From a virus, in the IMG/VR virus record IMGVR_UViG_3300036045_000012, positions 1-56,277 of that record: DNA of 56,277 nucleotides. One strand, 5' to 3'. The position numbers and the translations under genes were made by a program. Below are positions 1 through 55,481 of this stretch, one piece after another. Below the pieces are notes generated by a model. It had not been told where the DNA came from. It saw only the letters and a list, made by a program, of their open reading frames with translations, and searched no databases. The first letter of the stretch is position 1, and the number at the start of each line of letters is the position of its first letter.

Positions 1-1732
1 ACACGGGCGCGACCTACGCAACGGTAAGACGGACGAGCAAGACCTTATCAGGCGCGGCATGTCCAAGAAGGACGCCAGAGCCATTATCGCGGCTGGCGAC
101 GCGCCGCCGCTGACGGTTGAAGACATTGTCGGTCGCGCCCGTGTCCTTCAAAAACAGGGCGGCGCCATCAATGAAACCATTGCCGAGATCGGCGGCCCCG
201 GCCTTCAGCGTCAGGCGCGCGCGGTCGCGAACGTGCCGGGGCCTGGACAGGGCATCGCCGACCGGACTTTTCAAAGTCGTACTGAAACCTTGACGCCGCG
301 CCTGCTCGAAGAGGCGACGCGGGCGACCAGCGAAGTTCCGCGCGCAATTGATCGCGCCGTTCGGTCGAAGGCTGCTGATGCGCGTCGCGCCGTCATTGCT
401 GAGATGGCGCAGACAAAGCCAGTGGGCTGGCGTCCAAACAAGTCGGACAACCGCGCAATCAACGCTGAGCTTGAGATGCGCGGGCAGTCTCTCGCCCAAC
501 TTCGCAATGAATCGCAGCCCCCACCGCCCCGCGACTTCTATGAGGCGCGGGAGGCGCTTCAGCGTGCGCGAAGCGGTCAAGGCCGCGCGGCCTATCGCGA
601 AGCCTACAGCGAGAAGATCAATCAAGACATTGTGCGGGTTCAGGTGGAGCCTTTGATGCGTAACGGCTCGCCTGAGGCGATCGCGAGCGCAGCGCGTCAG
701 CTTGATACAGAACTCCTGCGGGTGCGCTCTGCGATAGCGGACCAACAGCTTCGAGGGCCAAACGCCAACGAGGAAGAGATAAATCGGCTCGTTGCGGAAC
801 TCGATGACATTCAGATTGCTGGCGCACAACTTCGCGCGATCGCATCAGGAAAAGATGTTGAAGGAGTGAATGTTCGCGCGCTCGACTATTATCAGCGTGG
901 TCTTCGCCAACTCTCTGAGGCGGCGGGCCCCCGCACGCCTGAGGGCTCGGCGTTCAGTCAAGCGCGCGAAACCTTCAACAGCCTTGTCGATCAGGTCGCT
1001 CCGAGGTTCGGAGAGGCGCGCAGGCAGTACGGCGAATCCATGCGCGTGGAGGAAATGATGGAGGCCGGGCGGAAGGTCTTCAACATGCCGGAAGGTGAGC
1101 TTGACCAATTGCTGCGCGGTCCGCGCGGGCAGGGTCTCAGCGCCGATGAGCTGGACGGGTTCATGATCGGCGCGCTCGACGCCATACAGTCGAAGATCAA
1201 CGCAGGTGACACAGCGTTTGTCGCGCGTTTCATGAAAAACAAGAACTGGCAGGCGCAACTCGACCGCGCGCTGGGCGCAAAGAACGCCCAGCGCCTACGC
1301 TCTCGGATCGGTCGTGAGGCAGGAATGCGCCGGTTTGAAAATGATGTGAAGGGGGGATCGCGGACGACTCCATTGGCGGAAGACATCAAGTCCCTCACTA
1401 CGGGCGAAGACGAGTTGAGCTTCATCGCTGAAATCATCCAGGGCGGCGGCAATATCCGTAATCCGGTTTTGCGCCGCTTCGCCGCTGCTTACGACCGTTT
1501 CAATCGCCCCGGCATATACAATCGAAACGTCAATGAGGCGCTGTCAAAATGGCTTTACGAAAGGGCTACGCCGAAAAACCTGCGCCAACTGGAACTCGAA
1601 CTTCAGGCCCTTGAGGCGCGGTCAAGTCTAAATCTTCCTGACGGCCTATCGGGGGCCGCCGGCGTGTTTGGCGCACGTATCATGCCTGACGAGGAGAAAA
1701 AGCTCCTTGTCGAGCGCGGCGCCCCGCAATGA
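1..1732 (+). CDS. internal virion (ejection) protein, C-terminal part
   Basis: This is the 3' portion of a gene that starts at 55481 and crosses the circular junction; joined, the protein is about 798 aa and this piece covers residue ~225 to the end. The text is helical, charged and Ala/Arg/Glu-rich, with no enzymatic motif I recognise. Protein context (after P22 gp7/gp20-like proteins and before a giant polyvalent protein) and the hydrophobic Gly/Ala stretches in its N-terminal part suggest a DNA-ejection protein stored in the capsid. An internal ATG at 59 could be mistaken for a start, but it lies in the middle of the conserved frame. The stop overlaps the next start (ATGA at 1729). Confidence 0.8.
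   Translation, partial: HGRDLRNGKTDEQDLIRRGMSKKDARAIIAAGDAPPLTVEDIVGRARVLQKQGGAINETIAEIGGPGLQRQARAVANVPGPGQGIADRTFQSRTETLTPRLLEEATRATSEVPRAIDRAVRSKAADARRAVIAEMAQTKPVGWRPNKSDNRAINAELEMRGQSLAQLRNESQPPPPRDFYEAREALQRARSGQGRAAYREAYSEKINQDIVRVQVEPLMRNGSPEAIASAARQLDTELLRVRSAIADQQLRGPNANEEEINRLVAELDDIQIAGAQLRAIASGKDVEGVNVRALDYYQRGLRQLSEAAGPRTPEGSAFSQARETFNSLVDQVAPRFGEARRQYGESMRVEEMMEAGRKVFNMPEGELDQLLRGPRGQGLSADELDGFMIGALDAIQSKINAGDTAFVARFMKNKNWQAQLDRALGAKNAQRLRSRIGREAGMRRFENDVKGGSRTTPLAEDIKSLTTGEDELSFIAEIIQGGGNIRNPVLRRFAAAYDRFNRPGIYNRNVNEALSKWLYERATPKNLRQLELELQALEARSSLNLPDGLSGAAGVFGARIMPDEEKKLLVERGAPQ
7..132. repeat. terminal direct repeat, left copy
   Basis: Identical to 56152-56277 over 126 bases. 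Bases 1-6 do not match the sequence before the right copy and are probably an assembly or adapter remnant. The reading frame continues through the repeat, so it marks circular or circularly permuted DNA cut inside a gene rather than a T7-like terminal repeat between genes. Confidence 0.95.
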
Positions 1733-4700
1733 GCTTATCGGACCTTTACCTGAGACTACGCGGCTCAGATGAACAGGAAGTGCGGCAGGAACGGTCAGCG
1801 CCCCCCCGCAACACGCCGTCCCCCATGGACGGCGGCCCAAGATCTAGAAAACGCGCTCCGTCGAAAGTTCAATCAAAGGGCGCGAATCAAGCCTCCCGCA
1901 ACCGCATGGCGTCGATTGCGAGGTCGCGTGCGATCTTGGAGGGGATTGAAGACTTGGGCGGGGCGCTTGCGTCGCCTTTCGTGGCGATGGCGACGACGCC
2001 GCTCGGGAAAAACACGATCCGGGAAATGCGCCGGGAAGCGCCGGAAGAGCCTTTCCTTGCCGGGCCGCGCTCGCCGGTGGACACAGACCCGTTCGCGGCG
2101 AATGTCGCCGATGAGATCGTTGTGACGGCGCAGCGGCTTACGCCGGAGGAGAAGGCAGCACGCACAATCGAACGTGCGGGAGAATTCGGCGAGCGTGTTT
2201 GGCGCGATCCTACGACGCAGGCTGTGGCGACGGCGCCGATCCGCGCCGGACAGTGGGCCGCCAAGGCGCCGTTCGATCCTATGGGCGCGCTTGGCGAAGC
2301 TGGCGGCTTCATGTTCCGGGACGCGCCGCGTGCGCTCGCGGAAAGCCCAGTCGGTCAATTCGCCAAAGCCATCTATGTCTATCCCGTCACTGGCGCGATT
2401 GCGGCTGAGCGCCGCGCGCTTGAGGCAGTTGATGCTGGTGAGTTGGACGGCGCGGTCGATGCCTACAAGGACGCTCACATCAACGAACTCCTTACGCTTG
2501 GCAACGCGGCCTTCGGCGCAGGCGATGCTGTGTTTCTGGCGAATCTCGGAAGAGGAGCGCGGGGCGCCAAAGCAGGCCCGCTGGCGGATGAGGCGTTTGC
2601 GCCGGCGGCTCCGCTGCGCGCGCCTGAGGCGCCAGGAACAGTCGCCGAAGAACTCATGCGCTTGCCCCCACAGAAAGCGGGCGAGCCCCCGGAACTCACG
2701 GCGTATCGCAACGCGCTTATCGAAGAACGCAACGCCGAGATCGCGGCGGAGAACGCAGCAAAGGCCGGGCAGCGCACGGCTGGCTTCGGTCATGCCAATA
2801 CGTTGGCGCAGCGCAGGGCGCTGGAGGAGGCGACGGCGCGCAACGGCGGGGCGTTTTCTCCCGCGCCACGCTATGGCGAGAATGCGCTGTCCGAGCCCGT
2901 CCCGGTCACGCCTGCTCGCGTCGATCCGGTCAACCGGATGCGCTTTAGCGCAAGCGATCCGCCGGACCGGGGGGCGCTCTTTCCGCAAGCCCCTCAAGGC
3001 GCTCTCTCCGATCCGTTCGAGCCGATAGGCAATGCAAGGGGAGGAGCGCCGCAGGCGGGGGTGGGCGCCAGCGCAGCGAATGATCGCGGGCTTGTCGGAG
3101 CGGTGCGCGGCGCGCTCGCCGAAGATGCTGCCGCGTTGCGCAATCGCCCGCGCAATCTGCGGGCGGCATCGACCGTGGAAACCGTGCGGGCTCGGAACAT
3201 GGGCGTGGTGCCTGGGGATGATGGAGTCTATGCGCGCGGCTACCACGGGTCTCCTAACGAGTTCAATCGCTTGGACGAAGGACGCATAGGGACTGGAAAT
3301 AGCCGTGGGGAGGGCGGATACGGATTCTATTTCTTCGACGATGCGGATCTTGCGGCCAGCCGCGGGCATGTCTACGCAGCGGACCTGCCGGATGGCCCCT
3401 ACATTGACTTCGATGCGCCGGTTTCCGAGCAACCGGAAGCCGTCAAGGCTGCACTGAGAGCCCTTGGAATCAATGTTGAGCGCGCCCCTCCTCCGGGGCT
3501 CTCCATACGCAGATCGCCTGACGGGTCAGTGGACCTGCAGATGCCCGGCGAGGACGGCTGGCGGACGTTCAGAAGCGAAGCGGCGGCGAGAGGGTATGCC
3601 GCGCGCGCCTCCGGCGCAGATGTCTATCATGAGCTCGCACGCAAGCTCGGCGGCCAACGCGCAGCGTCGGAAGCGCTTGCGGACGCGGGAATAGCAGGCG
3701 TCCGTTCACCTGGGCGTGCAGGCGGGACAGTGACCAATGTGTTCCCGCGCAACGGCGAAGGGCCTCGGTTGCTCAGTCGGGACGGCCGCCCTCTCCCCGG
3801 CAACCAGCAAAGACTGGCCCCGGATGAACCGGAGGGGGTGTTTGCGCCGGCGCGGGGTCGTCAAGGGGAACAAAGCAATGGTATCGGAAACGAAACGAAC
3901 AGAACATCTACGGAACGTCTCATAAACCCTTGGCGAGAAGAAAAAGCGCCACATGGAACGACTGCAGGGGCTCTCGCCGATTACTCTGACGGACTATCGT
4001 GGGCCGAAGTGGCCCGCCGAAACGGGCACTCCGGCGCAGATTCCGCGAAGCAAAACGTGAACCTCCTGCTACGCCGCGCCCGCCTCCGTATTGCTGACGG
4101 CCATAGCATCGAGAAAGTGGCCGCTGAAAACGGCACGGATGCGAAGACCCTCCAGCGGGCATTGGATGCGGGTCCTCGCCCACCCCGTGTTAAGAGCGAC
4201 GCCAACAAAGAACTGCTTGAGCGAATTGTTCCGCTTTGGAACCGCAGTTCGGTTGGTGCAGACGGAGTCGAAGTTCCTGCGCTTTCCCTGAGGCAGATCG
4301 CCGAGGAGCTCAACCTGCCGTTTGGCAAGGTCGCAGGTGTAATCAGCCGTTCTGACGACACAAGGCTGCGCCCGCGCATCCCGGGATCGCTTCGCGGATG
4401 GAAACCGGGAAGCGGCGGCATTGACCCGTGGTCTAACAACGCGCGCGCCGCACGGTCGGTGAACACCAAAAAGCCTGACGCCGCCAACATCTTCGCCCCT
4501 CTTGGCTATGGCTCTCTTGGCGGAGCGCTAGCGCTTGGGGCGGGGGATGCAGAGGCGCAGGAAGGCGACGAGATTGAAGCCCTGAAACAGCGTATCGCCG
4601 AACTGGAAGAAGACGAACGCCTCGTCAACAATCTCAATGACCCCGCCTCGGTCCGGAAAGTCCAGCGCCGGATCAATGTCAACGACGACGGGGTTATCGG

Positions 4701-5508
4701 CGTGGAGACGAGACAAGCGATTGACGCTTACAGGGAGCGCGTGCGCGGGGATCTGGGCGAAGCGCGCGCGCGCCTTCAGGCCTTTGAAGAGGCGGAGGCC
4801 GAACAATCCACCAGGGCCACGCCGTTCCAGCAAGCGGCGCGCGAGTTTGGTCCCTATGCCGGTCTTGGCGCCGGGCTGCTGTTAGGCCACCTCACCCGTG
4901 GCGGCGCGGTCCGCGGCGCCGATCGTGCGCTGGCGGCGCGCAATGCGCGGGCGGACGCCTTGCTCACGGAAGCGCCCTTGCGCGGCGGCCCGAAGGCGGC
5001 GGCTAAGCGCGTCGGCAATCTCAACGATTTCTGGTGGCGCGGCGGCGCGGGAAATCGCGTGCCGTTCGAGGCGGCGAAAACACCGCGCGGTTTCAAGCCG
5101 CGCAAGGACGCCGCCGCCGCCTCCGAGCTCTTCCAACCACAGGCGACCCTGCTCCGCATCCCCGATTATGGTTTCATGGGACTTGGCGCACTGGACGCAA
5201 CGATTGCAACCGGGTTCCTGAATGAGGCCAAACGCGAGCAGGAAGCGGCGCGGGAAGCAGTGCGGCTTGATCCCAGCGTCGCCAATCGCGTTCGTCTTGA
5301 ACAGGCCAATGACGCAGTGGCTCTCTGGACGTCCGCGCAGCGCTTCGGCATTGGGATGGCGACCGGACGCGGAGGATCAGCGTTCACGCACCGCTACTCG
5401 AACGCGCGCCCGAATGTCGCCTTGGCGGATCGAGAGCGGATTCTTCTCAACCAGTATCTGACAGCCAAGCGCAAGCCGAAACCAAAGCCTAAGAAGGCGA
5501 CCGACTAG
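1729..5508 (+). CDS. giant polyvalent virion protein with ART-like, HTH and peptidoglycan-binding-like regions
   Basis: 1259 aa, starting inside the previous stop codon. Residues ~505-680 resemble the ART-PolyVal family of ADP-ribosyltransferases: YHGSPNEF (His motif), YGFYFF (Tyr motif) and a late segment with ASEALADAGIAGVR. Residues ~750-890 contain repeated helix-turn-helix-like text (WAEVARRNGH, IEKVAAENG, LRQIAEELNLP). Residues ~972-1001 resemble a PG_binding_1 domain (VRKVQRRI...DGVIGVETRQAI). Gly-rich hydrophobic patches lie near 930 and 1045, and the C-terminus is Lys/Pro-rich. It is last in the late virion block, so it is probably packaged and ejected into the host. The third ART catalytic residue is not certain. 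Confidence 0.75.
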   Translation: MSLSDLYLRLRGSDEQEVRQERSAPPRNTPSPMDGGPRSRKRAPSKVQSKGANQASRNRMASIARSRAILEGIEDLGGALASPFVAMATTPLGKNTIREMRREAPEEPFLAGPRSPVDTDPFAANVADEIVVTAQRLTPEEKAARTIERAGEFGERVWRDPTTQAVATAPIRAGQWAAKAPFDPMGALGEAGGFMFRDAPRALAESPVGQFAKAIYVYPVTGAIAAERRALEAVDAGELDGAVDAYKDAHINELLTLGNAAFGAGDAVFLANLGRGARGAKAGPLADEAFAPAAPLRAPEAPGTVAEELMRLPPQKAGEPPELTAYRNALIEERNAEIAAENAAKAGQRTAGFGHANTLAQRRALEEATARNGGAFSPAPRYGENALSEPVPVTPARVDPVNRMRFSASDPPDRGALFPQAPQGALSDPFEPIGNARGGAPQAGVGASAANDRGLVGAVRGALAEDAAALRNRPRNLRAASTVETVRARNMGVVPGDDGVYARGYHGSPNEFNRLDEGRIGTGNSRGEGGYGFYFFDDADLAASRGHVYAADLPDGPYIDFDAPVSEQPEAVKAALRALGINVERAPPPGLSIRRSPDGSVDLQMPGEDGWRTFRSEAAARGYAARASGADVYHELARKLGGQRAASEALADAGIAGVRSPGRAGGTVTNVFPRNGEGPRLLSRDGRPLPGNQQRLAPDEPEGVFAPARGRQGEQSNGIGNETNRTSTERLINPWREEKAPHGTTAGALADYSDGLSWAEVARRNGHSGADSAKQNVNLLLRRARLRIADGHSIEKVAAENGTDAKTLQRALDAGPRPPRVKSDANKELLERIVPLWNRSSVGADGVEVPALSLRQIAEELNLPFGKVAGVISRSDDTRLRPRIPGSLRGWKPGSGGIDPWSNNARAARSVNTKKPDAANIFAPLGYGSLGGALALGAGDAEAQEGDEIEALKQRIAELEEDERLVNNLNDPASVRKVQRRINVNDDGVIGVETRQAIDAYRERVRGDLGEARARLQAFEEAEAEQSTRATPFQQAAREFGPYAGLGAGLLLGHLTRGGAVRGADRALAARNARADALLTEAPLRGGPKAAAKRVGNLNDFWWRGGAGNRVPFEAAKTPRGFKPRKDAAAASELFQPQATLLRIPDYGFMGLGALDATIATGFLNEAKREQEAAREAVRLDPSVANRVRLEQANDAVALWTSAQRFGIGMATGRGGSAFTHRYSNARPNVALADRERILLNQYLTAKRKPKPKPKKATD

Positions 5509-6160: not shown

Positions 6161-8524
6161 ATGGGATATCGCCTCGACCTCGGGCAAGCGCATCAGATAA
6201 CGTCCTCCGGCGCGCCACAAACCGGAGCTTTACTCTACGTCTATGCCAACACGACGACAACCCCGGTGGCGTTGTTCTCGGACTTCGACACGCTTGTGTC
6301 TGCGGCGAATCCGGTGGTGGCGGATTCTACGGGCCGCTTCCCGTATCGCTTCACTGCTGCTGAAGGGCCGCATACTTATGTCCTGAAGACAGCGGCGGGC
6401 GTGACCCTCTGGAGCGCCGACGACATCTTCGCCTACCCAGGCGACGTCGTCACGCTCCTCGCCAATGCGGGAGCCGTGTTCGCGACCCGCACTGCGGCGA
6501 TCGCCGCAACGATCCCCTCGACAGTTACCGCCATCGAAGTTCTACAGTACGCGGCAGGAACTTCGTACGCTGGATCACGCGCGCACTACCGGCGCGATAC
6601 CTCCGCTCCCTCCCACGCCGCCTATTTCCAGAGCGCGGACGGGGCCTATTGGGTGATGGACGAGCCCGACGCCTGGCTGAAAATGCTCGGCGCGGTCGAC
6701 GGGACGGGCGTCAATTCCCGCACGGCGGTGCAGAACCTCTTCGCGCTTCTGGCGGCGGAGGGCGCTTCGGTCGGCCGCGGCGAGATCGCACAATACCGGC
6801 TCGACAGCGGCGTCACCGGAACCGCTCCGGTGAAGTTCATCGGCGCGGGATCGGGCTCTGGCGGCGGCACAGCGACGAACGCAAACGCCACTGTCTTCAT
6901 GGTCAACTTCACCAACGGCGATGGGTTTGCGTTCACCACGCCTTACGGTGTCGACCTGTCGGGCTTGCGCATCGAGGACAACACCGGCGCGCGGGCGTCG
7001 GGCGCAGGCCTTGCGATCATCGGCTCGTCCGGCGTCAACGCCAATTCCCGCCTCACGGACGTTTCCACTTCCGGACAATATGACGGCATCCGCCTGCAGG
7101 ACGTGGCCTATCCGATCATCGACGGAGGCTATGACCAGGCATGGAAGCGCAGCGCCATCCGCTGCACCGTCGTCCAGGCGATCGAGAATTCCTTCGGGCA
7201 CATCCGCGACCGCTACTGCTTCGGCGACACGACGGCGGGCACGACGCAGGAAAGCTGCATTCACACCGAAGGGGGTTACCTTCTCGTCTCCGGCGGTCTC
7301 GCGCTTGGCGCACAGTACGGCTTTCGCTGCGTCCTCGGCGCCGGCTACCAGGCCGGCAACATCACAATCCGCGATCACAAGGCGGAAGAGAACGACATTG
7401 CAGGATGGCAATTTCAGGCGGGCGCAGGCGCGGCGCTCGCCATGCTTCTCATTGATGGCGGCGAGTTCGCGAACGACACGACCCACGGCAATTACCGGGC
7501 CGGCGTCCGCTTCGTCGATAACGGCTCCGACTGGCTATCTGTCTTTGTCGTTTCGAACATGCGGGGACGTCCGCGGATCACGCGCAACGACAGCGCCGCG
7601 TTCGAGATCGAGACCGGCGTCGACGGCACGATCTGCGATTCAGAAGTCGAACTCATGTCTGGGTCCAGCACGACGGCCTATGGCTGCCGGGTCGGCGCGC
7701 AGGTCAAGCGGCTCCGCATCCAGAACGTGAAGTTCAAGGGCTTCACTACGCCTTATGTCTTCTCGGGGACAGACAATGTTCTGCTTGAGGATTTCGCGAC
7801 GGGCCTCACGGTTGCGCAGGTGAACGCGCTGGCGACCGGATGCATCGACGGGTCGCGTGTTCTCGTCACGAATGGAAAGAAAGGCTCGGTCCCCCTCACC
7901 GCCGGCAGCGAAACGCTGATCGCGGTCCTGCGCAGCGGGCAATGGGAATGCGAGACCGCCTCCGGCGCCGAGGTCAAGCTGAACTCCGGCACGGTGTCGG
8001 CCGCGGCGACGCTGGACATTCCGTTCCTGGCTTCCGTCTATGGATCTGGGTTCAGGGGGTTCCAGATCGAGCTCGACTCCATGATCCCGGCGACCGACGG
8101 GGCGATCCCGTGGTTGAGGACTTCGACCAATGGCGGGTCTAGCTTCGATGCGGGCGCCAATGACTACGAGTATGCGGCGCATGCAATTCGCAACGACGGC
8201 ACGGTTGCTGCGCAGGTGTATGACGGCGGCTTGGGTGCCGCACAGATCGCGCTCGGCCGTACCGACGGCGGCGGAACCGGGGTCGGCAATGGTAGCGACG
8301 AAGGTTTCAACGCCACGCTGAAGATCATGAACCCGACCTCCTCCGCGCTGAAGGGCCGCGTCACCTATGACTGCGTCTATCTCGACGACAGCGCGGGCGT
8401 CGGCGTGTGGCGCGTCGCCGGCGCAGGCTACCGGGCGACGGCGCAGGACACGGACGCGCTCCGCTTCATGTTCTCGACAGGCAATATCGCCTCGGGTCGC
8501 TGGGCGCTTTACGGGATCCGATAA
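6161..8524 (+). CDS. tail spike / tail fibre with beta-helix
   Basis: 787 aa. Residues ~10-105 match the N-terminal module common in podoviral tail spikes (GALLYVYANTTTTPVALFSD, NPVVADSTGRFPYRF). The middle (~170-600) has pectin-lyase-like repetitive text with many short G/N/D turns (GLRIEDNTGARASG, ITIRDHK) as in right-handed beta-helices. The C-terminal ~180 residues look like a beta-sandwich. It would bind and possibly degrade a host surface polysaccharide. It stands immediately upstream of the lysis genes. No strong ribosome site is visible before the ATG. Confidence 0.85.
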   Translation: MGYRLDLGQAHQITSSGAPQTGALLYVYANTTTTPVALFSDFDTLVSAANPVVADSTGRFPYRFTAAEGPHTYVLKTAAGVTLWSADDIFAYPGDVVTLLANAGAVFATRTAAIAATIPSTVTAIEVLQYAAGTSYAGSRAHYRRDTSAPSHAAYFQSADGAYWVMDEPDAWLKMLGAVDGTGVNSRTAVQNLFALLAAEGASVGRGEIAQYRLDSGVTGTAPVKFIGAGSGSGGGTATNANATVFMVNFTNGDGFAFTTPYGVDLSGLRIEDNTGARASGAGLAIIGSSGVNANSRLTDVSTSGQYDGIRLQDVAYPIIDGGYDQAWKRSAIRCTVVQAIENSFGHIRDRYCFGDTTAGTTQESCIHTEGGYLLVSGGLALGAQYGFRCVLGAGYQAGNITIRDHKAEENDIAGWQFQAGAGAALAMLLIDGGEFANDTTHGNYRAGVRFVDNGSDWLSVFVVSNMRGRPRITRNDSAAFEIETGVDGTICDSEVELMSGSSTTAYGCRVGAQVKRLRIQNVKFKGFTTPYVFSGTDNVLLEDFATGLTVAQVNALATGCIDGSRVLVTNGKKGSVPLTAGSETLIAVLRSGQWECETASGAEVKLNSGTVSAAATLDIPFLASVYGSGFRGFQIELDSMIPATDGAIPWLRTSTNGGSSFDAGANDYEYAAHAIRNDGTVAAQVYDGGLGAAQIALGRTDGGGTGVGNGSDEGFNATLKIMNPTSSALKGRVTYDCVYLDDSAGVGVWRVAGAGYRATAQDTDALRFMFSTGNIASGRWALYGIR

Positions 8525-15883: not shown

Positions 15884-16885
15884 ATGACGAACTATGCTGA
15901 CCTCACGAACCCTATCTTCAACAACGACGAAGCGGCCCGCGTGCACTTTGAAAGCCTCCGCTGGGAAGGCGGCGTGCCGGTCTGCTTCCACTGCGGCGTG
16001 AGCGACGATGCGGTTCTGGTGAAGCGCGACGAAACGAAGGCGGCGGCCCAGAAGGCCAAGGGCAAGAAGACGGCCCGCGACGGTCTCTACTACTGCCGTT
16101 CGTGCGGCAAGAACTTCACCGCCACTATGGGCACCGTTTACGAGGACAGCCATATCCCGATGCGAAAATGGCTCCTCGCCACGCACCTCATGGCGGCCAG
16201 CAAGATGGGAATCCCCGCGCTCCAGCTTCAGCGCATGCTCGGTCTGGGCAGCTACCGAACGGCGTGGTTCATGGCGATGCGTATCCGCGAAGCGATGGAG
16301 AGCAACGGCGCCGGCCCGATGGGCGGCGAGGGCTCCATCGTCGAGGCGGACGAAACCTATTACGGCAAGAAGGAAGGCCCGGCGCCGACGAAATCCACGT
16401 CTGGCCGCCCCTTCACGAAGGGCGGACGCTCTGGCCCGTCTCATAAAAACGCGGTTGTCGCGCTCGTCGAGCGTGGCGGCAAAGTCCGCGCCTTCCACGT
16501 CGGCAACGTCACCAAGGAAGTCGTGGCGAAAGTCATCACGGAGAACGTCGCCACGACGGCGCGCCTACACACGGACGAAAGCCGTCTCTACACGGGTGCC
16601 GACGCGCACACGGCGACGCACGAAACGATCAACCACTCCCGCAAGGAGTACGCCCGCGAGGACGTGAACACCAACAGCGTCGAAGGCTTCTTCGGCGGCT
16701 TCAAGCGCTCCATGTCCACCTACACGCACTGCCGCGAGAAGTATCTCGGCCGCTACGTTCGTGAGAGCGAGTTCCGCTACAACACCCGCACAAAGCTCGG
16801 CTTCAACGATAGAGATCGCGCCGCGGCCGCGGTGAAGGGCGCGGTCGGGAAGCGCCTGACTTTGCGACCAGCTCCGGGACGCTAA
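15884..16885 (+). CDS. IS1595-family transposase (ISXO2-like)
   Basis: 333 aa. N-terminal zinc ribbon (CFHCG ... YYCRSCGKNF, residues ~31-80), an HTH-like region, then the ISXO2-like DDE domain: first Asp in IVEADETYYGKK (~150), second in LHTDESRLY (~230), and NTNSVEGFFGGFKRS with the third acidic residue (~265). Length and order match the family, with no frameshift. It begins 24 bases inside the left inverted repeat. Confidence 0.95.
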   Translation: MTNYADLTNPIFNNDEAARVHFESLRWEGGVPVCFHCGVSDDAVLVKRDETKAAAQKAKGKKTARDGLYYCRSCGKNFTATMGTVYEDSHIPMRKWLLATHLMAASKMGIPALQLQRMLGLGSYRTAWFMAMRIREAMESNGAGPMGGEGSIVEADETYYGKKEGPAPTKSTSGRPFTKGGRSGPSHKNAVVALVERGGKVRAFHVGNVTKEVVAKVITENVATTARLHTDESRLYTGADAHTATHETINHSRKEYAREDVNTNSVEGFFGGFKRSMSTYTHCREKYLGRYVRESEFRYNTRTKLGFNDRDRAAAAVKGAVGKRLTLRPAPGR

Positions 16886-17099: not shown

Positions 17100-17768
17100 C
17101 TATAAATTGTTGAGGAAGTCAGAAAGGTATTGCAGCTGGGGATGTGAGACGGGGATCAAGGTCGGCGTGTCGGCCCATAACGCAGAAAGTGGCACATTCG
17201 GATTCCGCGGATGAAGAATAGTCAAAGCCGCTCGAATACGCGCCTTGGATTCCTTTGAGCCGGGCCAAGTGGGAGGGTTAGTCGTGGCCTTCGCGCAAGA
17301 AATCATTCCACTAACGCACGCCATTTCATCGGGATGGAGTGCAGCGAGAACGTCGAGCAAATTGGTTTCTAGGCAGCCCAAGAGACCCGGCCCTGGAGAA
17401 AGTGCAACTGAAACCGTTCTCCCGTTTGCGCTTACCGGCGAGTAGGCCGCAGTCGGCACGGGAAAGTCAGTGGATACTTGCGTGTTGGCTCGCACGAATG
17501 CCGCTTGGATTCTCGTGAACGCGTCGGGGCTGGACAGATCATTGTCAGCGAACACCCCGAGCTTCTGGATGTTCGGAAATCCTGTGATACCCGACAAGCC
17601 GACCAAGTGGTCGGCCAGCGCATCAATGCCGGGCGCGTTTCCGGGGGCACCAACGCAAGTAATCTCGATAGGCGGAATAATGCCTTCGATTTTCATTTGG
17701 CGAACAAGGCCCATTTCCTCTTTGCCTTCGCAAATGAGCAAAGTGCCGAGATTGAATGGACCGATCAT
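17100..17768 (-). CDS. Toprim (DUF3226-like) protein, putative defence effector
   Basis: 222 aa. N-terminal LLICEGKEEMGLVRQM supplies the Toprim acidic residue, and LGVFADNDLS (~residue 70) the DxD motif. Later text (LSPGPGLLGCLETNLLD) resembles the P-x-G-LE segment of DUF3226, and Lys-containing KESKARIRAALT follows. Starts 8 bases after the ATPase stop. ATPase plus Toprim partners form the PARIS, AbiL and OLD-type abortive-infection systems, where the Toprim protein is a nuclease; that role is inferred here. Confidence 0.8.
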   Translation of the reverse strand: MIGPFNLGTLLICEGKEEMGLVRQMKIEGIIPPIEITCVGAPGNAPGIDALADHLVGLSGITGFPNIQKLGVFADNDLSSPDAFTRIQAAFVRANTQVSTDFPVPTAAYSPVSANGRTVSVALSPGPGLLGCLETNLLDVLAALHPDEMACVSGMISCAKATTNPPTWPGSKESKARIRAALTILHPRNPNVPLSALWADTPTLIPVSHPQLQYLSDFLNNL

Positions 17769-17776
17769 GATTGCCT

Positions 17777-40502: not shown

Positions 40503-42686
40503 ATGTATGATGGCGCTTCCATGTCCCCCGAAGATGGGGAAGAGTACGACGGTCTCGGCATCGAGACCTACAAGCGGTACTGGCAGGAATACGTCTCCGA
40601 CAGCGCAGAGCCGCGCCGGCAGAGCTTCATCGACCAAGACTATTACGACGGCGACGTGACCGGAACGGGGCTCGGTCACTACACGCAAGGCGAACTGGAC
40701 AAGTTCGCGCTCCGCAACCAGCCGCCGACTGTCTTCAACCTGATTCAGCGCCAGGTGGATTCGATCTCGGGCGTGGAGCAGCGAGCGCGCTCCGAGCCTC
40801 GCGCCAAGCCCCGCACGCCGAAAGACCAGAAGGGCTCCGAAGTCGGCACCGACGTGCTCCGCTTCGTGAAGGACCAGAGCCGCTTGTCAATGATCAAGGC
40901 GAATGCGTTTCTCGACGCGCTGAAAAGCGGAACTGCTGCGGTCGAGATCGGCTCCGGTTCGCGCACTGTGCCGATCTCGCAGATCGAAAGCCGCGACTTC
41001 TTCTACGACCCGCGCTCGCGTCGCTACGACTTCTCGGACGCCCGGTTTCTCGGATCGGCCAAGTGGCTGGACGAAGACGTGGCGCTCTCCATCTATCTTC
41101 CGCCGCGCCCGCAAGAGCCGCCGCCGATTCCGGAACAGCCGGCGATCCCCGAGCCGCCGGAAGATCCATACCTCTATGCACAGTGGGAGCCGCTCGCGAT
41201 GCAGGCGGTGGCGCTCTGGCGTCAGCAAGCCGCCGCCGTCGAAGCCGCTCAGCAGCAATATGAACGTGACGTCGCCGAGTACGAGCGGATCAAGACAGCG
41301 ATTCAATCGACGATGGCCGGCTCTCCCGCGGGCGAACTCGCCGACAGCGGCTGGGATGATCTGCCGAACAGTTCCATGCTGGGCGACACCACGCGCCGCC
41401 GCGTCTTCGTCATCGATATGTGGCACCGCGATCCGAAGAAGGGATGGTTTCGCTGCGTGTTCACGGGCGGGGGCAAGCTCTTCACCGAGGCCGCGACCGT
41501 GCTCGACGACATGGGCCGCCCGACGCATCCCATCGTGGCGTTCTCGCTCTATGTGTCGCGCCGGAACTGGCGCTACGGCGTCATCCGCAACATGCGCTCG
41601 CCGCAGGACGAGACGAACAAGCGCCGGTCTAAGTCGCTTCACCTCCTGACGACGAACCAGATCATCATGGAGCAAGGCGCGTCGGTCGACGGCAATGACG
41701 AAAACCTCCGCGCGGAAGCTGCGCGCCCTGACGGCAAGATGGTGGTCCGTCCCAACGCGCGGTTTGAACTCGTGAAGAATCTCGACCTCGCACAGGGCCA
41801 GAAGGCGATGGGCGATGAGGCGAAGTTCTTCCTCGAAAATCTCGGCCCGAACCCGCAACTCCGCGGCGAACAGGGCCAAGCCTCATCGGGCCGCGCAATC
41901 CTCGCCTTGCAACAGGCGGGTCTGGGCGCGCTCGGTCCCGTCTTCGACCGCTTCTACGACTGGGAGTTGCGCGTCTATCGGGCGATCTGGTCGCGCATCA
42001 AGCAGTTCTGGAACGAGGAGATGTATGTCCGCATCACCGACGACGAAGGCCAGGAGCAGTTCGTCGGCGTGAACGGTGCGCGCGCGCCGCGCAATCCGCG
42101 CAATCCCCCGCAGGCGGGCGCCGCGCCTGTCATGCCAGGCGGTCCCGGAGCCATGCCGCCGACGGGCGCGATGGCGCAGCCGATGATGGGCCACAATGGC
42201 GGCCCGATGATGGAAGCCGAAGACATGGGCGAGCCGGGCCCTATGCTCGGCGAACTCGACTTCGACATCGTCATCGACCGCTCGCCGGAAGCTGCGACCC
42301 TGCAGGCGGAGCAGTTCGAGACGCTCGGACAACTTGCGGCATCAGGCATGCCGATCCCGCCTGACGTGATCATCGAGGCTTCGTCCCTCCCGAACAAGCA
42401 GATGCTTCTCGACAAGCTCAAGAAGGCCGGGGAGGGGCCGAACCCGCAGCAGCAGGCGCAGATGGAAGAGGTGCGCGCCAAGCTCGCCGAGGTGGTCGCC
42501 TCTGTCGAGAAGATGAAGAGCGAGACGCGCAAGAACGACGCGCAGACGGCGCAGATCATCGCCGAAACCCGCAACACAAACGCCGATACTACACTCTCCG
42601 GCATGGAGCGAACCGCTGCGTTGATGCGGCCGCAAGCTCCCTCAGCGCCGCCGGCTGCAACGGGCGACTTCGGGCCGCCGCTGTAA
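40503..42686 (+). CDS. portal protein, P22-like
   Basis: 727 aa, the large size typical of P22-type portals. Core text NLIQRQVDSISGVEQRARSE, IESRDFFYDPRSRRYDFSDA and SPQDETNKRRSKSLHLLTT, with a long helical, Ala/Glu-rich C-terminal region (NNKQ...KLKKAGEGPNPQQQ) as for the portal barrel. Twelve copies would form the vertex for packaging and tail attachment. Confidence 0.9.
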   Translation: MYDGASMSPEDGEEYDGLGIETYKRYWQEYVSDSAEPRRQSFIDQDYYDGDVTGTGLGHYTQGELDKFALRNQPPTVFNLIQRQVDSISGVEQRARSEPRAKPRTPKDQKGSEVGTDVLRFVKDQSRLSMIKANAFLDALKSGTAAVEIGSGSRTVPISQIESRDFFYDPRSRRYDFSDARFLGSAKWLDEDVALSIYLPPRPQEPPPIPEQPAIPEPPEDPYLYAQWEPLAMQAVALWRQQAAAVEAAQQQYERDVAEYERIKTAIQSTMAGSPAGELADSGWDDLPNSSMLGDTTRRRVFVIDMWHRDPKKGWFRCVFTGGGKLFTEAATVLDDMGRPTHPIVAFSLYVSRRNWRYGVIRNMRSPQDETNKRRSKSLHLLTTNQIIMEQGASVDGNDENLRAEAARPDGKMVVRPNARFELVKNLDLAQGQKAMGDEAKFFLENLGPNPQLRGEQGQASSGRAILALQQAGLGALGPVFDRFYDWELRVYRAIWSRIKQFWNEEMYVRITDDEGQEQFVGVNGARAPRNPRNPPQAGAAPVMPGGPGAMPPTGAMAQPMMGHNGGPMMEAEDMGEPGPMLGELDFDIVIDRSPEAATLQAEQFETLGQLAASGMPIPPDVIIEASSLPNKQMLLDKLKKAGEGPNPQQQAQMEEVRAKLAEVVASVEKMKSETRKNDAQTAQIIAETRNTNADTTLSGMERTAALMRPQAPSAPPAATGDFGPPL

Positions 42687-49770: not shown

Positions 49771-50109
49771 ATGGCCCTGACAAATGCAGAACTCCGCGAG
49801 CGGATCGCCGACCATCTCCGCATCTCGGCGGTGGACCGTGCGCTTTCAGCGGAACGCGCCCAGAAGATCGACAATGCGATCGAAGACTGCTTCGCCACGC
49901 TGCGGGAAAAGAAGCTCCTGTGGTGGGCCGACAACGCGATCCCGCAGTCGTGCGTCAACGCCTTGAAGATGTATGTCGCCGCACATGCCTGCGCTTCCGT
50001 CGGCAAGGCGGGGCAGGGCTATGAGGGGGGTGAGGACTTCGCCCTGAAAGAACTGTCCGCGCTGAAGACGACCGGCACGACCGAGACCGTTCGGGCGGAC
50101 TATTTCTGA
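49771..50109 (+). CDS. P22 gp4-like connector/tail accessory protein
   Basis: 112 aa, helical. ISAVDRALSAERAQKIDNAI and NALKMYVAAHACASVGKAG fit the small head-closure/tail-accessory proteins found before gp10-like genes in P22-type phages. The identification rests on position and helical pattern. Confidence 0.65.
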   Translation: MALTNAELRERIADHLRISAVDRALSAERAQKIDNAIEDCFATLREKKLLWWADNAIPQSCVNALKMYVAAHACASVGKAGQGYEGGEDFALKELSALKTTGTTETVRADYF

Positions 50110-51497
50110 TGCCGCGCGTTCCGTTGCCGATGCCGTCTCGCGCCGGCGAGATGAAGTCAAAGTTCGTCTCGGCGCAGACGCTCATCAACTGCTTCGTGGA
50201 GATGCATCCGCAGACCGGCCCGGCGATCTATGGCTGGCCCGGCCTAACCCTCTTTGCGACCTGCGGCGACGGCCCTATCCGGGGCATGATCGACTTTTCC
50301 GGCGCCCTTGTCGTGGTCTCCGGTTCGACGCTCTACTCGGTTTCGAGAACGGGCGCTGTCTCTCCTGTCGGAACGATCTCCGGCACGACCGCCGTGATCA
50401 TGGCCCACAACGGCTTTCAGGTCGTCATTGTCGCGGAGGACGTGGACACCTCCTATGTCTATGACGGTGTCACGGTTGCAGAGATCACCGACGCTGATTT
50501 TCTAGGGGGATCGAGCGTCGACTTCATCGACCAGTATTTCGTCTTCACCCGCAAGGACAGCCAGCAATTCTTCGTCTCCGCGCTTGCGGACGGGGCGTCC
50601 TACGATGCGACCGACGTGGCCTCCGCAGAGGCCAAGCCTGATAATCTCCTGCGCGTGATCGTCGACAATCGCGAAGTCATGCTCTTCGGGACCAAGAGCG
50701 TTGAGGGCTGGTACAATGCGGGCGACGCGGACTTTCCGCTCGCGCGCTCCACGACCTTTGTGGAATACGGCCTCGCGGGCCGCAACGCCGTAGCTAAAGC
50801 CGACAACACGGTGTTCTGGCTGGCGCCGGACAATACGGTGCGCGCGCTGCGCGGGGGGACGCCGCAAATCATCTCCGACCATGCCGTCTCCAACCTCATC
50901 GAGGCGTGGTCCGATCCATCCGCCACGTCGGCGTTTGTGGTGAGCTTCCGCGGTCACACCTTTTTCGTGCTGCGCAATCCGGATGGATGCGTGGCGATAG
51001 ACGCCGCAACCGGCCTTCCCTTCGAACTCGTCTCCTATGAGATGGACACATGGCGGGTCGGCTGCGCCGAGTTCGTCTGGAACGGCACGGTCCTCGGAGA
51101 CGCCGAGAACGGCGCTATCTACAGGCTTGACCCTGACGCCTTCGACGAGAACGGGGAGCCCCATGTTCGGGAATGGGTCTCGTCCACGATGAATCCGTCT
51201 GGAAGCCCTTTCACGCTGGACGAGGTGGAGATCGATATCGAGGTCGGCGTCGGTCTTGTCAGCGGGCAGGGGAGCAACCCCGTCGTCTGGATGAAGGCGT
51301 CGCGCGATAGCGGCGAGAGCTGGGGCGCGCGCATGGAGCGCGAGATCGGCGCGCGTGGCGATCGCGAACTTCGTGTGGTGTGGGAGGACTTCGGGCAGTT
51401 CCCCACGCATGGCGGCGCGATCAGCATGGGGATTTCAGATCCCGTGCGCTTCGTGGTGACGCGAGGATGGGCGACGTTCACGGAGGACAGGCCGTGA
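50109..51497 (+). CDS. packaged DNA stabilisation protein, P22 gp10-like
   Basis: 462 aa. Typical opening SAQTLINCFVEMHPQTGPAI, then WPGLTLFATCGDGPIRGM; beta-propeller-like text throughout, with FIDQYFVFTRKDSQQFFVS and VFWLAPDNTVRAL. In P22 gp10 forms a plug ring that closes the portal. Starts on the stop of the gp4-like gene (TGATG). Confidence 0.88.
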   Translation: MPRVPLPMPSRAGEMKSKFVSAQTLINCFVEMHPQTGPAIYGWPGLTLFATCGDGPIRGMIDFSGALVVVSGSTLYSVSRTGAVSPVGTISGTTAVIMAHNGFQVVIVAEDVDTSYVYDGVTVAEITDADFLGGSSVDFIDQYFVFTRKDSQQFFVSALADGASYDATDVASAEAKPDNLLRVIVDNREVMLFGTKSVEGWYNAGDADFPLARSTTFVEYGLAGRNAVAKADNTVFWLAPDNTVRALRGGTPQIISDHAVSNLIEAWSDPSATSAFVVSFRGHTFFVLRNPDGCVAIDAATGLPFELVSYEMDTWRVGCAEFVWNGTVLGDAENGAIYRLDPDAFDENGEPHVREWVSSTMNPSGSPFTLDEVEIDIEVGVGLVSGQGSNPVVWMKASRDSGESWGARMEREIGARGDRELRVVWEDFGQFPTHGGAISMGISDPVRFVVTRGWATFTEDRP

Positions 51498-52045: not shown

Positions 52046-52603
52046 GTGCGCAATTTCGATAGGATCATGGATGGGGTGAATGTGGGGCCTTTGGCCCACG
52101 CGGTTTCTCGGAGTTTCCATCTCTGGAACGAGAACAAGTTCCGGACGACGTTCCCGAACACGCCACATGTCGATGTGGACGACATCTGGCTTCGTTTTTC
52201 CGATCCTGAGAAATGCACGACCACGACCAAGGTCATCGGCGACGTCAAGCCGGTCTGGTTTCCGGCGGCGCAGGAGCTTTACGAAGCCAAGCCTTTGATC
52301 ACGGGACTCATGGCCCAGGTCGGCGCTTACGAACTCGGCCGCGTACTGATCACGCGTATCAGGCCTGGCGGAGTGATTCTTCCGCACGCCGACAACGACG
52401 GCGAATACGTTCTGACTCCTGATATCGCCCGCTATCATATCGTTCTGCAGGGACTTCCTGGGTCCCTTTTTCACTGCGGCGGCGAAACGGCGTGCATGAG
52501 AACCGGCGAGGTCTGGTGGTTCAATGCGCACGAAATGCACAGCGTCGAGAACCACTCCGCCGACGATCGCATTCATCTTCTTGTGGACGTGCGCACATGG
52601 TGA
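52046..52603 (+). CDS. 2OG-Fe(II) oxygenase-like (Asp/Asn hydroxylase-type)
   Basis: 185 aa, GTG at 52046 with AAGGAG upstream. Metal motif HADNDGEY (H-x-D) with RIRPGGVILP before it, the distal His in EMHSVENHS and an Arg in DRIHLLVDVR: the double-stranded beta-helix layout of aspartyl/asparaginyl-hydroxylase-like enzymes. It sits among virion genes and is coupled to a GNAT gene; a virion protein or a host target may be hydroxylated. Confidence 0.75.
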   Translation: MRNFDRIMDGVNVGPLAHAVSRSFHLWNENKFRTTFPNTPHVDVDDIWLRFSDPEKCTTTTKVIGDVKPVWFPAAQELYEAKPLITGLMAQVGAYELGRVLITRIRPGGVILPHADNDGEYVLTPDIARYHIVLQGLPGSLFHCGGETACMRTGEVWWFNAHEMHSVENHSADDRIHLLVDVRTW

Positions 52604-53059: not shown

Positions 53060-54028
53060 ATGGTGGCGGCGGCGATCATCGGGAGTACGGTCGCTTCTGT
53101 CGGCGCCAGCGCTATCAGCGCTGGCGTGCAGTCGAGCGCGGCGCGAAGAGCGGCGGGCGCACAAGCGGCCTCCGCCGACGCCGCGACCAATCTTCAGCGC
53201 GAGATTTACAACGATCAGAGATCGCTGTCGGCGCCGAGCGCGAGACTGGGGTCCGCCGCCGCCGCCGCACAGGCCGTCATGGCAGGACTTCCTGTCGGCC
53301 TGGCGCGTGAAATGTATGGCGACGTCCGCAAGGCGCTCGGCGCCACTGCGGGTGCGGCAGGGGCCTTCGGTCTCGGCGCTCCGGAGGGAAAGATGCCGGA
53401 CTGGTCCGGCTATTGGTCTTCGATAGAACCGACAACGAGAAACAATCCGACGTCCCCTTGGCACGGAATCGCAGCCGGAACTGACGGTTCGCCAGAAGCA
53501 CTAGGGCAGGCTTACTACCAGTGGACCGGCGGCGGCTATGCTGCGCCGAACTTCATCGACGATCCCAACTACGTTGCGCCGACAAACACCGCAACGGACG
53601 ATGACGATTTTCTTGGTGGGTTCACATCCGAGGGCTGGGCTTCTTCCGATCCTGGTTACCAGTTCCGTCTCAATGAGGGGACGAAAGCCCTTGAGCGCAG
53701 CGCTGCGGCGCGCGGCATGCTTTTTTCCGGCGCAACCGGGAAGGGTCTCACCAGATACGCTCAGGATTACGCATCGAACGAGTACGACAAGAGCTTCAAC
53801 AGGCTTGGCGTCCTGTCTGGTTCCGGGCAGGTCGCCACACGCGACATCAATTCTGCATCGGGCGCGTTTGGCGCGAACGCGGCCAACAACATCATGGCCT
53901 CCGGCCGGGATCGTGCGAGCGCTTATGAAACGTCGGGGAAAGCGTGGGGGAAGGTTGCTGAAGACGCCGGCGACGCCGTGGGCTGGGGCGTGGGCGCCTA
54001 TGGCGGTTACAAGGGCTGGTGGGGCTGA
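53060..54028 (+). CDS. DNA-transfer/ejection protein (P22 gp7/gp20-like position)
   Basis: 322 aa. An N-terminal hydrophobic, Ala/Gly-rich segment (AAAIIGSTVASVGASAIS) is followed by the block DPGYQFRLNEGTKALERSAA, ARGMLFSGATGKGL, DYASNEYDKSFNR, common to podoviral internal proteins. It ends with GVGAYGGYKGWWG. Presumably ejected to form a trans-envelope channel. Confidence 0.8.
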   Translation: MVAAAIIGSTVASVGASAISAGVQSSAARRAAGAQAASADAATNLQREIYNDQRSLSAPSARLGSAAAAAQAVMAGLPVGLAREMYGDVRKALGATAGAAGAFGLGAPEGKMPDWSGYWSSIEPTTRNNPTSPWHGIAAGTDGSPEALGQAYYQWTGGGYAAPNFIDDPNYVAPTNTATDDDDFLGGFTSEGWASSDPGYQFRLNEGTKALERSAAARGMLFSGATGKGLTRYAQDYASNEYDKSFNRLGVLSGSGQVATRDINSASGAFGANAANNIMASGRDRASAYETSGKAWGKVAEDAGDAVGWGVGAYGGYKGWWG

Positions 54029-54756
54029 TGTCATTTGAATCGTTCATTCGCGCCTCCGAGGCCGGGCGGCGCATGGGGCGGGATTGGCGTTCGGCGCGAA
54101 TTAATCGCGAAGCCGGTCAAGCGTTTGCAGACGCCGGCGGCGGGGAGAGCGGATGGGGCGCTGTCGGCGCTCTGGCCGCCAAGGAGGGCGATCTGGACCT
54201 TGCGCGCAGCGCAGAGGATCGTGTCTATCAGACGCAGGAGCGCGGGGCGCAGACCGAACAGCGCGAGCGGGCGGCCTGGGAGCGTCGGCAGATCGTTTTC
54301 AACAACGTTCTCACGAGCCTGCGAAGCATTCCGTACGAACAGCGCAAGGCGCGCATTGCGCACATTGCGCCACGCCTTCAGCGAGAGGGCTTCACGCCTG
54401 AAATGATCGCGGCCTACGACCCGACAGATGAGAAAATCGCCGCCGACCTCGCCGCCTCTGGGCAATTTTCTCAGTATGCCGAGATGAAGCAGGACGTGGC
54501 GGGGCGCTGGATCGGCGTCACGCGGGATGGACGGATCGTGCCGATCGAGGGCGCGCCGCCGCCGCCGCAAGTCCGAACGCTTGCGCCGGATGAGGTAAGA
54601 GACGCCGGCTTTCGTCCCGGCTCAGTCGTGCAGCAGGGCTTCGACGGGGCTTACGATGTCGTACAGGCTCCGCCGGTGTTCAATCCCTATAGCGCTGGCG
54701 CGCGCGAGGTGAACGCTCCGCCGCTTCCGCCGGGATATCTCCGGGATCCAGAGTGA
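54028..54756 (+). CDS. internal virion protein
   Basis: 242 aa from the ATG at 54028 (TGATG). Helical, Arg/Glu/Gln-rich (RVYQTQERGAQTEQRERAAW), then a Pro-rich C-terminus. Probably an ejection protein from its place in the operon. Confidence 0.7.
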   Translation: MSFESFIRASEAGRRMGRDWRSARINREAGQAFADAGGGESGWGAVGALAAKEGDLDLARSAEDRVYQTQERGAQTEQRERAAWERRQIVFNNVLTSLRSIPYEQRKARIAHIAPRLQREGFTPEMIAAYDPTDEKIAADLAASGQFSQYAEMKQDVAGRWIGVTRDGRIVPIEGAPPPPQVRTLAPDEVRDAGFRPGSVVQQGFDGAYDVVQAPPVFNPYSAGAREVNAPPLPPGYLRDPE

Positions 54757-55481
54757 TGGCGGAAATTACTGCGACCAACCCGACGACGGGTCACCGGATC
54801 GTTCTGAGAAACGGGCGATGGGAGCCTATGTCTCCAGATAAGGAAGGGCCGAGCTGGACGCCGCAGGATCGAGAACAGCTCGCCGCTGAGAGGGGAAAAC
54901 TTCAAACGGCGACCCGCGTAAGTGAGGCCGCAGACAGATTCCTTCAACACAATTACGAACGCGGCACAGGTGGCCCAGGATCAGATTTCATGATCCCACG
55001 ATGGTGGCAACCGAACCGACAAGCGATGGAGGGGCTTTCCGCTGAAATGGTGCGAGCCAACATTCAGCCTGGTACGTCCAGCACGATGAACTCGAACGCC
55101 GAGCAAGACTTGGCCCGTTCGCAGTATCTGAGTGTTCAAAATGCCGGCCCACTCAATCGAAAACGGGCAGAGGAACTTTCGAGAGAAAGATTTCGTCAGA
55201 CCGAGCGGTTCAACGCTATGGATCAGTGGCTGAAAGAACGCGGCTCCCTTACTGGGTTTGAACAGGCGTGGATGGCTCACGAGCCGCAGATCATGGCGAA
55301 ATTTCGTTATGTTCAGCCACCGACTTTTTCCCAACAAGCACAACAGCAGCAACAGCAACGGACGCAGCGCGCGACTCTCCCCCCTGTCGATCAACGCCAA
55401 GTCGGCCAAGTTTACCAAATGGCGAACGGTAGGGGCGGTCGATGGCTTGGTCCCGGCCGTGGCTTTGAGCCGGTGGACTGA
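54756..55481 (+). CDS. internal virion protein
   Basis: ~241 aa from the ATG at 54756 (a GTG at 54753 adds one residue). TNPTTGHRIVLRNGRWEPM is a short beta motif common at the start of phage internal proteins; a Gln-rich stretch near 205 (QQAQQQQQQR) precedes GRWLGPGRGFEPVD. Its stop overlaps the next start (TGATG). Confidence 0.7.
   Translation: MAEITATNPTTGHRIVLRNGRWEPMSPDKEGPSWTPQDREQLAAERGKLQTATRVSEAADRFLQHNYERGTGGPGSDFMIPRWWQPNRQAMEGLSAEMVRANIQPGTSSTMNSNAEQDLARSQYLSVQNAGPLNRKRAEELSRERFRQTERFNAMDQWLKERGSLTGFEQAWMAHEPQIMAKFRYVQPPTFSQQAQQQQQQRTQRATLPPVDQRQVGQVYQMANGRGGRWLGPGRGFEPVD

What the first reader, a model, noticed from the sequence alone, without database searches (positions are those of the whole stretch)
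1729..5508. ADP-ribosyltransferase-like domain inside an ejected virion protein, with HTH and peptidoglycan-binding-like parts
YHGSPNEF and YGFYFF with downstream ASEALADAGIAGVR look like ART-PolyVal. The same chain has HTH repeats and a PGBD-like unit. It may enter the cell with the DNA and modify a host target, like T4 Alt, while also helping cross the wall.
Basis: partly seen in the sequence, partly recalled or inferred. Interest (0 to 1): 0.8.

Follow-up and report, generated by a model that had tools for sequence, protein, structure and literature searches.

The report
Eroded ADP-ribosyltransferase-like domain in phage protein
A short-tailed phage encodes, next to the proteins it probably injects with its DNA, a 1259-residue protein carrying a worn-down copy of an ADP-ribosyltransferase domain common in phages; it keeps the fold and two of three catalytic positions but has lost the third and most of the residues its relatives share, so it may no longer be an enzyme.

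Summary
The ORF and the quoted motifs are real. Residues ~500-680 are homologous to a sub-class of phage ART-PolyVal domains: a profile built from 65 viral relatives without this sequence scores it 59 bits, against 5.6 for the best of 1000 shuffles. An AlphaFold model (pLDDT 78) matches ART folds best: a domain of the cyanophage A4 pre-ejectosome, diphtheria toxin, AcrIF11, MbcT. The gene is the last before the tail spike in a P22-like structural module. It overlaps by four bases (ATGA) the stop of the last ejection-protein-like gene, so packaging and ejection are plausible but inferred.

The T4 Alt-like host-modification reading is weakened. His506 and Tyr534 are kept, but the third catalytic position is Thr669 (Asp in the family's founders, Asn in 66/66 close relatives). 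The GTGEG glutamate, the helix tyrosine, the YLD motif and the SR arginine, each conserved in 70-73 of 73 relatives, are lost or deleted. HTH-like units are plausible but sub-threshold; the peptidoglycan-binding match is weak. Most likely this is an ejected polyvalent-type protein with a degenerate, probably non-catalytic ART-fold module: a new variant of a known kind (Iyer et al. 2017).

The parts
1729..5508 (+). 1259-aa ORF (P0001) that carries the ART-like domain; ATG overlaps the TGA stop of the upstream ORF (ATGA)
   Evidence: coding potential in frame (which prefers the later start at 1825)
3226..3774 (+). ART-PolyVal-like domain, residues ~500-682
   Evidence: viral-ART profile 59.4 bits, two blocks 503-543 and 543-659; AF2 model pLDDT 78.4, pTM 0.68 with ART-fold matches
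3244..3246 (+). His506, first triad position (YHGSP); His in 73/73 relatives
3328..3330 (+). Tyr534, second triad position (GFYFF); Tyr in 73/73 relatives
3727..3741 (+). residues 667-671 TVTNV, model strand at the place of the third triad residue; no Asp/Glu/Gln/Asn at the aligned column (Thr669; Asn in 66/66 relatives)
3961..4368 (+). HTH-like region, residues ~745-880 (HTH_23 match at residues 787-813)
   Evidence: sub-threshold
4567..4722 (+). weak PG_binding_1-like stretch, residues 947-998
   Evidence: 14.6 bits against a cut-off of 23
2..1732 (+). 3' part of the upstream 798-aa ejection-protein-like ORF, which continues across the record ends from 55481
   Evidence: 126-base terminal overlap; E 2.7e-4 match to the last large ORF before the spike-like ORF in a Porphyrobacter prophage, L102
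55481..56277 (+). 5' part of the same 798-aa ORF
53060..54028 (+). P22 gp7-like DNA-ejection protein
   Evidence: phrog_598 E 1.2e-31; homologues just downstream of gp10-like genes in most relatives
54028..54756 (+). ejection-cassette ORF
   Evidence: position; match to L089 E 2.3e-8
54753..55481 (+). ejection-cassette ORF
   Evidence: match to Pan3_13, annotated ejection protein, E 6.9e-5
50109..51497 (+). gp10-like head closure / DNA stabilisation protein
   Evidence: phrog_578 E 4.9e-94
40503..42686 (+). portal protein
   Evidence: phrog_156 E 1.5e-81
6161..8524 (+). tail-spike-like protein just downstream
   Evidence: phrog_14820 and phrog_26190 matches (families of unknown function); matches to ORFs of relatives, including one annotated as pectate lyase and one as tail spike in L002

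Best explanation
P0001 is an extra, polyvalent-type protein of the ejection cassette of a P22-like podovirus. It is probably made late with the E-proteins, packaged, and passed into the cell with or ahead of the DNA (inferred). It carries one ART-PolyVal-derived domain (shown by sequence) that still folds as an ART (model) but has lost the third catalytic position and most of its sub-class's conserved polar residues (shown by alignment). That domain therefore most likely works as a non-catalytic module, binding a partner or ligand, or as a structural piece of the ejected complex, rather than by ADP-ribosylating a host protein. The HTH-like repeats could bind DNA or give further protein contacts (inferred).
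For: Homology: profile without this sequence 59.4 bits against 5.6 for shuffles; three colinear motif blocks against the seed L120. Fold: AF2 pLDDT 78.4; most of the best VIA-align rows are ART proteins: 9k3a_B (A4 pre-ejectosome, Z 6.3), 1ddt 6.2, 9qe9 6.2, 6kyf 5.3, 6fkg 4.2, 6hxs 3.5 (6KYF is AcrIF11, PMC12421852); viral library hits named ART-PolyVal. Erosion: GTGEG Glu (73/73) is Asn524; Gln (71/73) is Gly527; helix Tyr (73/73) deleted; YLD Tyr and Asp (73/73, 70/73) deleted; SR Arg (73/73) is Pro661; NYV Asn (66/66) is Thr669; profile match ends at residue 659; no hidden motif in other frames. Context: gp10-like, gp7-like, E-like ORFs, P0001, spike; ATGA overlap; a stand-alone ART of this class lies between gp10-like and gp7-like genes in another P22-like contig; the giant polyvalent protein of JC1, a relative by portal, is in the virion by mass spectrometry (PMC9144972).
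Against: No virion proteomics for this phage. The ORF itself has no detectable relative in the collections searched. The AF2 alignment consists of canonical ARTs, so the fold is not independent of the homology. ART catalysis can use acids in variable loops (AcrIF11 D115 or D146/E147); Glu677 in the loop after the model strand cannot be excluded. The 73 relatives were chosen by pattern and by closeness to L120, so the true family may tolerate more variation.
Confidence: 0.6

Rival explanations
1. Active, T4 Alt-like injected enzyme: the domain is a divergent but working ART that modifies a host protein on entry, with another residue (such as Glu677) in place of the usual third triad residue.
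For: H506 and Y534 and the IGTG, DxD and SEQ motifs are kept; ARTs are the commonest protein modifiers in polyvalent proteins and are thought to be injected (PMC5512222); the acid is not at a fixed place in AcrIF11 homologues.
Against: Third position Thr669; loss of six further near-invariant residues and of the conserved helix after strand 2.
Confidence: 0.2
2. Plain structural ejection protein: P0001 forms part of the trans-envelope conduit like P22 E-proteins, and the ART-like domain is a passive spacer or remnant.
For: Position next to the last E-protein-like ORF; a solved cyanophage A4 pre-ejectosome chain has an ART-like domain with YHGT and GTYF motifs; P22 E-proteins form a conduit (PMC8402733).
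Against: Relatives do without it: an ORF of this kind was not found in about 105 gp10-anchored relatives, so it is not core machinery.
Confidence: 0.3
3. Late-operon cargo or lysogeny gene that is not packaged, placed by chance between the ejection genes and the spike.
For: P22 itself carries non-virion genes between gene 16 and the tail spike (own knowledge); no homologue of proven virion location.
Against: ATGA overlap with the E-like ORF, same strand as the late genes, size and composition like polyvalent proteins, and the parallel G785 contig.
Confidence: 0.15

Closest known systems
ART-PolyVal (PF18760) domains of polyvalent proteins (Iyer et al. 2017), in particular the sub-class with KIGTGEGAQAYGHGLYF ... 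LDWDKPLSEQ ... GIPGIKYLD.SR ... NYVVFDD
   Same: Order of motif blocks, His and Tyr of the triad, IGTG, DxD, SEQ, GADVY, AS..L..AGI.G; ART fold in the model; in a large protein encoded near virion genes
   Different: Third triad position, GTGEG Glu, helix Tyr, YLD, SR and NYV residues lost; below the Pfam cut-off (17.6 against 31.2 bits)
Giant DarB-like polyvalent proteins of Lessievirus JC1, Parlo and LASTA
   Same: Large ORF at the end of the structural module of phages with a related portal; JC1 gp69 is virion-associated by MS; LASTA carries a divergent ART-like motif set
   Different: P0001 is 1259 aa, not ~4000; no helicase, methyltransferase or LPD domain found
Cyanophage A4 pre-ejectosome protein (A4L gp27, 9k3a chain B)
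   Same: ART-like domain in an ejectosome protein of a podovirus; best VIA-align match, Z 6.3 over 134 residues
   Different: No sequence match to the viral ART profile; different phage family
AcrIF11 (6KYF), phage ART that modifies Csy1
   Same: ART fold, top Foldseek PDB row (E 0.19, probability 0.60)
   Different: Stand-alone 137-aa chain in 6KYF; active enzyme with an acidic residue in the catalytic loop
T4 Alt
   Same: Concept of an ART packaged and injected with DNA
   Different: R-S-E clade, not H-Y-D (PMC5512222); no sequence relation tested

Membership tests
ART superfamily, H-Y-E/D class | split beta-sandwich ART fold | tested here: met
   AF2 pLDDT 78.4; seven of the nine best VIA-align rows are diphtheria-toxin, SAIP, MbcT or PARP16 entries, the others AcrIF11 and the A4 ejectosome; Z 3.5-6.3. 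Moderate strength; the alignment came from ART relatives
ART superfamily, H-Y-E/D class | His in strand 1 | tested here: met
   H506, 73/73 His
ART superfamily, H-Y-E/D class | Tyr in strand 2 | tested here: met
   Y534, 73/73 Tyr
ART superfamily, H-Y-E/D class | Glu/Asp/Gln at the strand-5 catalytic position | tested here: not met
   Thr669 (neighbours V668, N670); relatives Asn 66/66; founders Asp
ART superfamily, H-Y-E/D class | NAD binding and transferase activity | not testable with these tools
   needs biochemistry
ART-PolyVal (PF18760) | score over Pfam's gathering cut-off (31.2 bits) | tested here: not met
   17.6 bits for the domain alone; the canonical relatives L120 and L137 also miss it (24.3, 22.9), L215 passes with 31.9
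ART-PolyVal sub-class (relatives of L120) | significant match to a profile of members that excludes this sequence | tested here: met
   59.4 bits against 5.6 for the best of 1000 shuffles
Polyvalent proteins (Iyer 2017) | two or more disparate recognised domains in one chain | tested here: inconclusive
   ART-like domain solid; HTH sub-threshold (21.7 against 24.6 bits), PG_binding_1 weak
Polyvalent proteins (Iyer 2017) | encoded among virion genes | tested here: met
P22-like ejection proteins | sequence similarity to gp7, gp16 or gp20 families | tested here: not met
   no PHROG or phmmer match for P0001, while its neighbour at 53060 matches phrog_598
P22-like ejection proteins | present in the virion and ejected | not testable with these tools
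   needs proteomics
T4 Alt family | R-S-E active site | tested here: not met
   the conserved set kept here is H-Y
PG_binding_1 | score over the cut-off of 23 bits | tested here: not met
   14.6 bits

The most novel reading that the evidence does not exclude
ART folds have been taken up more than once as non-catalytic building or docking modules of podovirus ejection proteins (this protein; perhaps the ART-like domain seen in the A4 pre-ejectosome), a class of injected pseudo-ADP-ribosyltransferases.
Probability: 0.25. Interest if true: 0.6.

Novelty: new variant of a known kind. Interest (0 to 1): 0.38.

Why it matters
Phage-injected ART domains are widely predicted to rewire hosts like T4 Alt, but domain hits are rarely checked for catalytic residues. 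This case shows a member that keeps the fold and appears to have lost the chemistry, and it points, with the solved A4 pre-ejectosome, to ART-fold domains as recurrent parts of ejection proteins whose role (enzyme or structure) can be tested directly.

Tried and rejected
Whole-protein relatives: none in phages, viral contigs, genome contigs or 385 genomes of an alphaproteobacterial prophage's class. Two ART-seeded scans with degenerate plasmid copies found nothing until a canonical seed (L120) was found. Single-sequence AF2 was useless (pLDDT 37). Profile search of solved structures gave only chance matches to designed gp41 helical constructs and the like. Frameshift or assembly error as the cause of the lost C-terminal motif: the other frames show no hidden YLD or NYVVFD, nor the YRD helix. 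ART of this class in gp10-anchored relatives: none in 1.08 million residues of ORFs. An LPD23 domain, as in the plasmid ART protein, was not found above its cut-off in the seed genome. PADLOC gives no match for P0001. The paper on the A4 pre-ejectosome structure is not in the library, so whether its authors named the ART-like domain is unknown.

Full report
What is there. The window is a virus record whose ends overlap by 126 bases, so the genome is probably complete and circular or circularly permuted, about 56.15 kb; the first and last ORFs are one 798-aa ORF. The + strand carries a P22-like module: large terminase, portal (phrog_156, E 1.5e-81), major head protein (phrog_334), gp10-like closure protein (phrog_578, E 4.9e-94), gp7-like DNA-ejection protein (phrog_598, E 1.2e-31), two ORFs of about 242 aa, the 798-aa ORF, the 1259-aa ORF in question, then a spike-like ORF. 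The 798-aa ORF matches, weakly, the last large ORF before the spike-like ORF of a Porphyrobacter prophage (E 2.7e-4), and 54753-55481 matches an annotated ejection protein of cyanophage Pan3 (E 6.9e-5). The 1259-aa ORF starts inside the stop of the 798-aa ORF (ATGA).

Is the ART-like domain real? Pfam's ART-PolyVal gives only 13.6 bits (E 0.12) over residues 503-544. A weak plasmid hit in a protein with five ART-PolyVal matches and then a genome search led to a canonical seed, L120, with the motif series of a phage ART sub-class. A scan of viral contigs with it returned at least 574 relatives, 80 of them kept. A profile of 65 of these, without the window's sequence, scores P0001 at 59.4 bits; the best of 1000 shuffles scores 5.6 and the best other window ORF about 2. 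The match is colinear in two blocks, 503-543 and 543-659, skips model positions 45-125 and stops at 213 of 243.

Fold. Without an alignment AF2 fails (pLDDT 37); with 65 relatives it gives pLDDT 78.4, pTM 0.68. VIA-align's rows with Z of 5 or more are the cyanophage A4 pre-ejectosome (9k3a_B, residues 1418-1602), diphtheria toxin entries, an insecticidal-protein catalytic domain and AcrIF11; MbcT (4.2) and PARP16 (3.5) follow, then unrelated small domains. These Z values are moderate; the consistency of ART proteins is the evidence. A4 gp27 near residue 1425 reads YHGT...GSGTYFS, which supports the reading that its matched region is ART-like.

Active site. Against 73 relatives: kept are H506 (73/73), G507, P509 (73/73), the IGTG run, G530, G532, Y534 (73/73), F535, D560, D562, P564, S566-E567-Q568, G629, Y633, A646, S647, L650, G654, I655, G657. 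Lost are the GTGEG Glu (73/73, N524) and Gly (S525), Gln (71/73, G527), Tyr (72/73, G529), the tyrosine of the helix after strand 2 (73/73, deleted), Tyr and Asp of YLD (73/73, 70/73, deleted), Arg of SR (73/73, P661) and Asn of NYV (66/66, T669). Iyer et al. give the triad of these ARTs as His, Tyr and Asp in strand 5 (PMC5512222); in the model that strand is residues 667-671, TVTNV. No reading frame hides the missing motifs. Glu677 is the only acid close behind the strand. The relatives were chosen by pattern and closeness to L120, so counts near the patterns are biased upward.

Other parts. The region 745-880 holds HTH-like units (HTH_23 21.7 bits, cut-off 24.6); residues 947-998 give PG_binding_1 14.6 bits, cut-off 23. 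The N-terminal 480 residues have no match.

How it most likely works. Gene order, the ATGA overlap and parallels make packaging likely: a stand-alone ART of this sub-class lies between the gp10-like and gp7-like genes of contig G785; 12 of 38 ART-bearing contigs have a match to the same portal family, four of them strong; and in Burkholderia phage JC1, whose portal is related, the giant protein at the end of the module is in the virion with 51 unique peptides (PMC9144972). P22 E-proteins leave before the DNA and form a conduit (PMC8402733). Packaging and ejection of P0001 itself are inferred. Given the residues lost, I think the ART-fold unit is non-catalytic, either a docking module or a structural piece; an active, remodelled enzyme is less likely but open.

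Comparison. It works within the known theme of polyvalent, virion-carried ART proteins. It belongs to the ART-PolyVal lineage by sequence, but fails the active-site criterion and the Pfam cut-off. It is not a T4 Alt relative. Among about 105 gp10-anchored relatives, no ORF matches the ART profile, so the domain looks like an accessory gain in this phage (many of those loci are short, so this is a lower bound). Verdict: new variant of a known kind, interest 0.38.

Noticed in passing
window 7-132 and 56152-56277: 126-base exact overlap of the record's ends, missed by the 'linear' class because of six odd leading bases: the genome is probably complete and circular or circularly permuted.
   Followed up: yes
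window 17103-18871 (-): AAA_15/AAA_21 ATPase beside a DUF3226 protein, with low coding score against the rest of the genome; best PADLOC matches AbiLi, PDC-M38A and AriA (PARIS), possibly a defence-like cargo pair.
   Followed up: partly
window 15884-16885 (+): IS1595/ISXO2-like transposase inside the phage genome, close to the defence-like pair.
   Followed up: no
window 52046-53055 (+): Aspartyl/asparaginyl hydroxylase-like and GNAT acetyltransferase genes between the gp10-like and gp7-like genes; JC1, Parlo and LASTA have an acetyltransferase in a similar place.
   Followed up: partly
window 2098-2136 (+), residues 124-136 of P0001: Motif NVADEIVVTAQR resembles the start of TonB-receptor plugs (own knowledge); no such motif in the relatives' ORFs searched.
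   Followed up: partly
L101 (NZ_CP142123.1): Stutzerimonas plasmid protein with five ART-PolyVal matches; the unit nearest to the window's domain is itself degenerate (Ser for His, Arg at the third position).
   Followed up: partly
L219, A4L gp27 residues ~1420-1600: The region that corresponds to the solved A4 pre-ejectosome match carries ART-like motifs (YHGT, GTYF), although the gene is annotated 'tail protein'.
   Followed up: partly
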